NCBI RefSeq assembly: GCF_947489355.1
Contig: NZ_CANLDD010000013.1
Location: 1 to 64,000, forward strand
Source: an uncultured Microbulbifer sp.
Lineage (GTDB): Bacteria; Pseudomonadota; Gammaproteobacteria; Pseudomonadales; Cellvibrionaceae
DNA: 64,000 nt
Reading direction: 5' to 3'
The notes beneath the pieces were generated by a model. That model searched no databases, was not told the DNA's origin, and saw only the letters and a list, made by a program, of their open reading frames with translations. Position numbers and translations under genes: made by a program. This document shows, piece by piece, positions 21,690 to 54,138 of the stretch; within the stretch, counting starts at the first letter, position 1, and every line of letters begins with the position of its first letter.

Positions 21690-21732
21690 GTCACAGCGGC
21701 GAGGGTATCCTTTCCTTTCAGCCCGGTAGTAA
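21690..21732 (+). repeat. Partial copy (D) of the dispersed palindromic element
   Basis: A degenerate right end of the element described at 31697-31832. The segments CACAGCG, GAGGGTATCCTTTCCTT and GCCCGGTAGTAA match the right ends of the other copies in order. It lies immediately downstream of epd, between epd and the peroxiredoxin-like gene. Confidence 0.6.
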
Positions 21733-31696: not shown

Positions 31697-31832
31697 TTAC
31701 TAACAAGGCGGAAGGGAAGAATACTCTTATCTCGGGGCCGTATGAGGCATGGACGCCGACTACGAGCGTACAGGGAGGTATTTACAGCGTGTCCCGAGAG
31801 GAGGGTATTCTTTGCTTCCGACCCGGTAGTAA
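31697..31832 (+). repeat. Full copy (A) of a dispersed palindromic element
   Basis: An element of about 136 bp with imperfect inverted ends of about 40 bp, of which I count 31 matches. Left end TTACTAAC, then GGAAG and AGAATACTC; right end GAGGGTATTC, then TTCCG and CCCGGTAGTAA. The core contains GGCATGGACGCC and the pair GAGCGTACA / TATTTACAGCGT, each able to fold. It sits behind the GNAT gene. Other copies are at 52950-53080 (full), 32194-32278 (inverted, one end missing) and 21690-21732 (partial). Confidence 0.85.
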
Positions 31833-32077: not shown

Positions 32078-32193
32078 AAGTATATGTGACCGAAAAGGGT
32101 ATACCTTCCATGTATTTCTGAATCAGCATTGAAGGGTGAATTCAAGGCGTTTTCTCCAAAACATTTGCATATCTGTGGCACAGGAATACGTAT

Positions 32194-32278
32194 ACTACTG
32201 GGCCGGAAGGAAAGAATACCCCTCTCCCAGGACACGCTGTGAATACATCCTTATACGCTCGGGATCGGCATCCATAGG
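32194..32278 (-). repeat. Truncated inverted copy (C) of the dispersed element
   Basis: Read on the minus strand, this stretch matches the core and right end of copies A and B: GGATGCCGAT, GAGCGTAT, GTATTCACAGCGTGTCC, GGGTATTCTTTCCTTCCG and CAGTAGTA. The other inverted end is missing. It lies about 360 bp from copy A, in opposite orientation, within the degenerate region. Confidence 0.8.
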
Positions 32279-52924: not shown

Positions 52925-52949
52925 TGCGTTCGGCTTGATTCCGAATGAC

Positions 52950-54138
<1,189 letters not shown>

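What the first reader, a model, noticed from the sequence alone, without database searches (positions are those of the whole stretch)
31697..31832. Dispersed element of about 135 bp with inverted ends (two full, two partial copies)
The same folded sequence occurs at 31697-31832, 52950-53080, inverted at 32194-32278 and as a partial right end at 21690-21732. Its left and right ends are imperfect inverted repeats (31 of 40 in copy A). The core carries small palindromes of its own. All copies lie between genes, three of them in or beside accessory DNA. It could be a MITE derived from an insertion sequence, a REP-like element, or a structured RNA. Size, ends and distribution fit a MITE best.
Basis: seen in the sequence. 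Interest (0 to 1): 0.6.

Follow-up and report, generated by a model that had tools for sequence, protein, structure and literature searches.

The report
Mobile CsrA-site RNA element
The repeat is one of about 70 genome-wide copies of a small jumping element whose strand folds into a long stem carrying two hairpins that match the binding site of the global RNA regulator CsrA; relatives with completely different but still perfectly paired stems occur across Gammaproteobacteria, so it looks like a widespread, mostly unrecorded structured RNA.

Summary
Confirmed and extended. Copies A and B and both partial copies are real; the host genome (a Microbulbifer) holds about 70 copies of this 135-bp element, none inside a predicted gene. 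One copy interrupts an IS3-type transposase gene, and an uninterrupted homologue shows a TA target duplication. A 90%-identical relative lacks the window copy and has only four hits, so the element spread recently. MITE is therefore right for this genome, but not the whole story. The 60-nt core is class-wide (72 of 369 sampled Gammaproteobacterial genomes), enclosed by stems of unrelated sequence that always pair: all 19 modelled stem pairs show double changes across 102 copies. At one orthologous site before fba, 12 species have re-paired stems. G.U far exceeds A.C (31:6, outside the model), so the GGA strand folds as RNA or ssDNA. Both hairpin loops read CANGGANG (88/102), 23 nt apart, the CsrA/RsmE consensus. 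Rfam's TwoAYGGAY (RF01731) has the same architecture, but window copies do not match it. Best explanation: a mobile, structured CsrA/RsmA-binding RNA module, mobilised here as a TA-targeting MITE. CsrA binding and transcription are inferred, not shown; the transposase was not found; orientation to genes is random.

The parts
31700..31829 (+). Copy A, element body (CTA...TAG); GGA strand is +
   Evidence: R1 hit 31720-31809 + 84.2 bits
31698..31699 (.). TA at left end, presumed target duplication
   Evidence: sequence; TA duplication shown for a sister copy
31830..31831 (.). TA at right end, presumed target duplication
   Evidence: sequence
31707..31738 (+). P1, 5' arm of the long stem
   Evidence: folds; covariation in relatives
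31791..31823 (+). P1, 3' arm of the long stem
   Evidence: folds; covariation
31739..31764 (+). P2 hairpin; loop motif CATGGACG (CANGGANG) at 31748-31755
   Evidence: sequence; GGA 99-100% conserved in 102 copies; motif in 95/102
31766..31788 (+). P3 hairpin with conserved 3' bulge; loop motif CAGGGAGG (CANGGANG) at 31771-31778
   Evidence: sequence; GGA 99% conserved; motif in 93/102
52949..53079 (+). Copy B, between a PGM/PMM gene and an amino-acid-kinase gene; loops CATGGAGG 52998-53005 and CAGGGATG 53021-53028
   Evidence: R1 hit 52969-53059 + 67.5 bits; absent in relative G812
32193..32275 (-). Partial copy, one arm lost, both GGA hairpins still readable
   Evidence: E=2e-22; 24.5 bits
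21694..21731 (+). Partial copy, right end only, just beyond the stop of a GAPDH gene
   Evidence: (E=0.0018)

Best explanation
It is a mobile structured-RNA module. SHOWN: the GGA strand folds as a long stem (P1, about 26-43 bp) closed by a three-way junction with two hairpins (P2, P3). Both hairpins display CANGGANG, the apical motif bound by CsrA/RsmA/RsmE, with starts 23 nt apart. Stems change sequence completely between species and copies but stay paired. SHOWN: in this Microbulbifer the module sits in a 135-bp unit with TACTA...TAGTA ends that duplicated a TA target at one tested site and multiplied recently to about 70 intergenic copies. INFERRED: it is mobilised in trans by a transposase of the IS630/Tc1-mariner type, which duplicates TA. 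INFERRED: when a copy is transcribed, usually by read-through from a neighbouring gene, the two loops hold one CsrA dimer, so the copy acts as a CsrA decoy or as a CsrA anchor on that transcript; RNase III may cut the long stem and free a small decoy. New insertions would then deal CsrA sites around the genome; most decay, some are kept, as before fba.
For: Structure: P1 16/19 pairs with double changes in 19 sequences; 34/37 pairs in 102 copies, covariation 0.735 against 0.156 shuffled and at most 0.136 slid. Orthologous site before fba: 12 species with different, re-paired stems and absences in others. Strand: P1 outside the model GU:AC = 31:6, p=4e-5. Loops: GGA 99-100%, CANGGANG in 95 and 93 of 102, both in 88, spacing 23 in 83 of 90. 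CsrA literature: CANGGANG hexaloops, 18-nt optimal and 21-nt observed spacing (PMC4894983), Rsm motif (PMC6849547). TwoAYGGAY architecture, L121 36.8 bits on the same strand; RMfam links TwoAYGGAY to CsrA binding (PMC4333381). CsrA is encoded in all 22 genomes checked. Mobility: TA duplication, absence in G812, 4 hits there against 70 copies here.
Against: No binding or transcription data. Orientation to genes is random, so half the copies would be antisense to the adjacent gene. The conserved UUYACRGC bulge and junction bases are not explained by CsrA alone. Among the copies of the host genome itself GU and AC changes are about equal (48:62, from the table), and GGA is no better kept than the rest of the core, so most copies here decay neutrally. 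csrA number and element number do not rise together in the genus. No transposase with matching ends was found.
Confidence: 0.62

Rival explanations
1. Strand-specific single-stranded DNA element: the GGA strand folds as ssDNA and is recognised by a transposase or recombinase (as REP/RAYT or integron attC hairpins are). The loops are protein contacts of that enzyme, not of CsrA.
For: Folding of one strand is what the GU:AC bias shows, and G.T also beats A.C in ssDNA. Orientation to genes is random. Unexplained conserved junction and bulge. Copies cluster and form tandem arrays in some genomes.
Against: Exact CsrA consensus in both loops at CsrA spacing. The TA duplication fits a DDE enzyme better than a Y1 transposase. 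Genes enclosed by element pairs read as ordinary metabolic genes, not recombinases. Long-term conservation at one site before fba.
Confidence: 0.17
2. Plain MITE: a selfish non-autonomous transposon whose core is kept only because the transposase or its accessory proteins need it; no RNA role.
For: Copies, TIRs, TA duplication, recent burst and neutral decay in this genome.
Against: In other genomes the terminal arms, which a transposase should read, are unrelated between copies while the core is kept. Folding of one strand is favoured. Stems are re-paired at an orthologous, non-moving site.
Confidence: 0.15
3. Perfect arms arise by mutation, not selection: quasipalindrome correction by template switching keeps any long inverted repeat perfect.
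For: Arms are often perfect over 30 bp.
Against: Template switching predicts no strand bias, but GU:AC is 31:6. P2, a short stem inside the core, covaries as well (10 of 11 pairs). Loops and junction are nearly invariant.
Confidence: 0.05

Closest known systems
TwoAYGGAY RNA (Rfam RF01731)
   Same: Long outer stem enclosing two neighbouring hairpins with AYGGAY-type loops; reported from Gammaproteobacteria and Clostridiales (PMC2864571); predicted CsrA binder (PMC4333381).
   Different: Window copies give no Rfam match even at E<=10. The best element copy reaches 36.8 bits against a gathering score of 43. P3 here is short with a conserved UUYACRGC bulge. Mobility and TA insertion are, as far as found, not described for TwoAYGGAY.
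CsrB/CsrC/RsmX/Y/Z decoy RNAs and the flaA leader decoy
   Same: GGA motifs in hairpin loops; pairs spaced for one CsrA dimer (PMC4894983).
   Different: Only two sites per copy, many dispersed copies, no own promoter identified, enclosed in a long variable stem, mobile.
IS630/Tc1-mariner-type MITEs such as Correia/NEMIS and ERIC
   Same: About 100-200 bp, TIRs, intergenic, many copies, long stem if transcribed; Correia/NEMIS stems are cut by RNase III (PMC10969869). TA targeting of these families is from general knowledge.
   Different: Here the core, not the ends, is conserved between species, and it carries two CsrA-type hairpins.
REP/BIME elements
   Same: Intergenic, strand-specific folds, tandem and inverted clusters; alternates with REP-like units in G596.
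   Different: Much larger, TA duplication, no GTAG/GGAG head, different loops.

Membership tests
MITE | Short, non-coding, many dispersed copies | tested here: met
   135 bp, 70 copies, none in a predicted gene
MITE | Terminal inverted repeats | tested here: met
   TACTA...TAGTA ends in alignment
MITE | Target-site duplication | tested here: met
   TA, one site with uninterrupted IS3-type homologue
MITE | Autonomous parent with the same ends | tested here: inconclusive
   The DDE_3 transposase loci of this genome lack these ends; parents of other families, or in other genomes, were not searched. Not strictly required of a MITE; the claim rests on the other features
IS630/Tc1-mariner-derived element | TA target duplicated | tested here: met
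IS630/Tc1-mariner-derived element | DDE transposase recognising these ends | tested here: inconclusive
   none found in this genome
TwoAYGGAY RF01731 | Score at or above Rfam gathering threshold (43 bits) | tested here: not met
   window element none at E<=10; of 20 loci with element copies the best copy scored 36.8
TwoAYGGAY RF01731 | Outer stem with two AYGGAY hairpins | tested here: met
CsrA/RsmA-binding RNA | Paired CANGGANG loops at dimer spacing | tested here: met
   88/102 copies, 23-nt spacing
CsrA/RsmA-binding RNA | Physical binding by CsrA | not testable with these tools
   needs EMSA, CLIP or pull-down
CsrA/RsmA-binding RNA | Transcription of the GGA strand | not testable with these tools
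   no RNA-seq held; GU:AC bias is indirect and also fits ssDNA
REP element (RAYT-mobilised) | GTAG/GGAG head and RAYT partner | tested here: inconclusive
   no such head in the aligned copies; RAYT genes were not searched

The most novel reading that the evidence does not exclude
A class-wide family of transposable riboregulatory elements: mobile units that carry a ready-made two-site CsrA/RsmA platform, spread it between genes, and are kept at some sites by compensatory evolution, so that CsrA regulons or the free CsrA pool are rewired by transposition.
Probability: 0.35. Interest if true: 0.88.

Novelty: new variant of a known kind. Interest (0 to 1): 0.72.

Why it matters
If right, it explains a very common but apparently unrecorded class of folded intergenic repeats in Gammaproteobacteria, extends the TwoAYGGAY idea from a small orphan family to hundreds of copies, and makes testable how CsrA regulons gain sites: by transposition, not only by point mutation. 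It also supplies a natural series of one scaffold with many stems for studying CsrA-RNA recognition.

Tried and rejected
Rfam gathering scan of the window and permissive scan of the element: nothing. Matching IS630 ends: none. Orientation bias as evidence for 3'UTR function: none. Plasmid and phage records: no match, so spread by those was not supported. Genes between inverted copies as a possible transposase: the translated ORFs read as ordinary metabolic genes. TSD from the G812 empty site: too diverged, replaced by the IS3-type case. csrA copy number as a correlate of element number: not positive. Apparent lack of CsrA in six congeners as a counter-argument: in G027 the csrA place after lysC is a 5-kb run of N, so absence there is an artefact of masking; the other five were not checked. 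miRNA and Ysr224 Rfam hits in relatives are far below their thresholds and on long hairpins, rejected as chance. Sequence strings in papers: none. Literature searches for CsrA-binding repeats or MITEs found no description.

Full report
Observation. Copy A starts TTACTAACAAGG and ends CCCGGTAGTAA. Copy B and the two partial copies align to it. A search of the host genome (4.79 Mb, 264 contigs; the window is contig 13) with copy A gave 40 scored places, most near full length, at 80-97% identity. The 17-base right end has 70 matches with up to two mismatches, against 2 for the reversed pattern. Fetching these gave 70 distinct copies, nearly all 135 bp. None overlaps a predicted gene, and orientation to neighbouring genes is random.

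Mobility. The ends read [TA]CTA...TAG[TA] in nearly all copies. The copy at C29:43246 lies inside an IS3-type transposase gene. A homologue in congener G004 (84% identical) is uninterrupted: GGG ATT TAC ATC there, against GGGACT-TA-element-TA-TATC here. So one TA became two. The relative G812, 90% identical over the flanks, has only about 13 bp in place of copy B, and four model hits in its whole genome against 70 copies here. Two or three of those four lie in flanks that match loci holding copies in this genome. The element therefore spread recently in this lineage. A TA duplication with these short ends points to a DDE transposase of the IS630/Tc1-mariner type (general knowledge), but the five DDE_3 loci of this genome do not carry these ends. 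The mobiliser is not identified.

The core is older than the MITE. In 35 of 58 relatives searched the match was often only to bases 36-101. Reading those places showed the same core between long inverted arms of entirely different sequence. The common fold is a long stem P1, then hairpin P2 (GGCAUGGAUGCC), then hairpin P3 (GUACAGGGAUGUAU with a UUYACA bulge), then the other arm of P1. On 19 gap-free sequences, 20 of 37 pairs (16 of 19 in P1) changed on both sides; no shuffle reached the observed values and slid structures fell to about a fifth of the covariation score. A covariance model R1 built from them hit 72 of 369 genomes drawn from the class, in 65 of 272 genera. In a phylum-wide draw all 26 genomes with hits were of the same class. 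These are lower bounds, because only 10-11 candidates per genome were scored. On 102 copies, 34 of 37 pairs had double changes; that alignment was fitted to the model and leans towards the structure, which is why the unfitted A1 and the outside-model count below matter.

Selection on one strand. G.U pairs on one strand are A.C mismatches on the other, so their ratio tells which strand folds. In the part of P1 outside the covariance model, hence not used to find the copies, GU:AC was 31:6 over 84 non-host copies (p=4e-5). Inside the model it was 45:8. The folded strand is the one with the GGA loops. This does not separate RNA from single-stranded DNA. Among the copies of the host genome itself GU and AC are about equal (48:62 in columns 17-41 of the table), and GGA is no better kept than other core bases: most of these young copies decay without selection.

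One fixed place followed through species. In the genus of G541 the element sits before the gene read as fructose-bisphosphate aldolase (fba, from its translation; not tested by HMM). Twelve species carry it in the same orientation with arms and P2 stems of different sequence that remain paired; G826 has a variant with an altered P3; two species (G834, G840) have it inverted; others lack it, with 39-68 bp in its place. On 26 hits from these loci 31 of 37 pairs show double changes, and 10 of 11 in P2. That is hard to explain for a spent transposon copy and fits selection on the fold. Location in the wider set: 41 tandem, 13 convergent, 3 divergent, 0 of 76 in genes, and sense and antisense equally common.

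What the loops are. GGA is 99-100% conserved in both loops, and the full loops read CANGGANG in 95 (P2) and 93 (P3) of 102, both in 88, with starts 23 nt apart in 83 of 90 cases. CANGGANG apical hexaloops are the high-affinity CsrA/RsmE target; 18 nt is the optimal intersite distance and 21 nt occurs in the flaA leader (PMC4894983; also PMC6849547). CsrA is encoded in all 22 genomes checked. Six congeners seemed to lack it; for G027 the place after lysC is a run of 5,000 N, so the absence there is a masking artefact. The twelve further G027 copies read all keep GGA in both loops. I therefore think a CsrA dimer is the likeliest partner. Binding, transcription and effect are not shown, and the conserved bulge and junction bases suggest something beyond CsrA contact.

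Known families. Rfam has no match in the window or in the element, even at E<=10. One relative, L121, matches TwoAYGGAY (RF01731) over its whole length on the right strand at 36.8 bits, below the gathering score of 43. The architecture is the same: a long stem enclosing two AYGGAY hairpins. TwoAYGGAY was reported from Gammaproteobacteria and Clostridiales (PMC2864571) and later predicted to bind CsrA (PMC4333381). So it works like, and is probably related to, TwoAYGGAY, but on the Rfam test it is not a member. Literature searches found no account of a CsrA-site MITE or of this repeat; only open-licence papers could be searched.

Organism. The genus is Microbulbifer: the record NZ_FNQO01000001.1 (Microbulbifer marinus) is identical over 3,065 bp to the locus of congener G012.

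Verdict. A real, recently mobile element in this genome, whose conserved core is a class-wide, strand-specifically folded module with paired CsrA-type hairpins. The structural and mobility parts are strong (about 0.9 by my judgement); the CsrA role is inferred (about 0.6).

Noticed in passing
Host genome C23:4185, C20:35781, C3:107233, C39:36599, C45:36351, C9:66144, C3:1314, C1:15862 (L246-L253); relatives G812, G009, G807, G809, G029: Dispersed csrA paralogues: 9 CsrA genes here, 10 in G812, 19 in G009 and G807, 27 in G809, against 1 in most congeners. Fifteen of these loci from the host and G812 share a conserved 5' region of more than 400 bp, as if csrA itself were on a repeated, possibly mobile unit.
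   Followed up: partly
L254 (G812) 1998-2153 and 2219-2353; also L248, L246, L251: A csrA paralogue lies about 66 bp from a full element copy in G812, and element copies or fragments lie within about 1.3 kb of three of nine csrA loci in the host. Too few to claim a link.
   Followed up: partly
L176 (G596) 1026-2252: Six element copies in tandem, period about 227 bp, each followed by a unit TGTAGGAGCGGCTTCAGCCGCGATAAGC that looks like a GTAG-type REP.
   Followed up: no
L230 and L237 (G834, G840) before fba: Element in the opposite orientation at the same intergenic place as in sister species, so either inverted between its own arms or inserted independently.
   Followed up: no
L150 1707-1764 +: A match to Rfam TwoAYGGAY above its gathering score (46.1 bits) about 120 bp from an element copy.
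   Followed up: partly
L034, L039, L103, L267, L270, L274: Variant elements in Microbulbifer in which the 3' side of P3 is replaced by GGGGGGCGCCYAGCCCGT, adding a segment to the hairpin.
   Followed up: no
G027:C1 about 1540001-1545000: 5 kb of N directly after lysC in a single-contig genome hides the expected csrA locus; family counts in such genomes can read zero falsely.
   Followed up: yes
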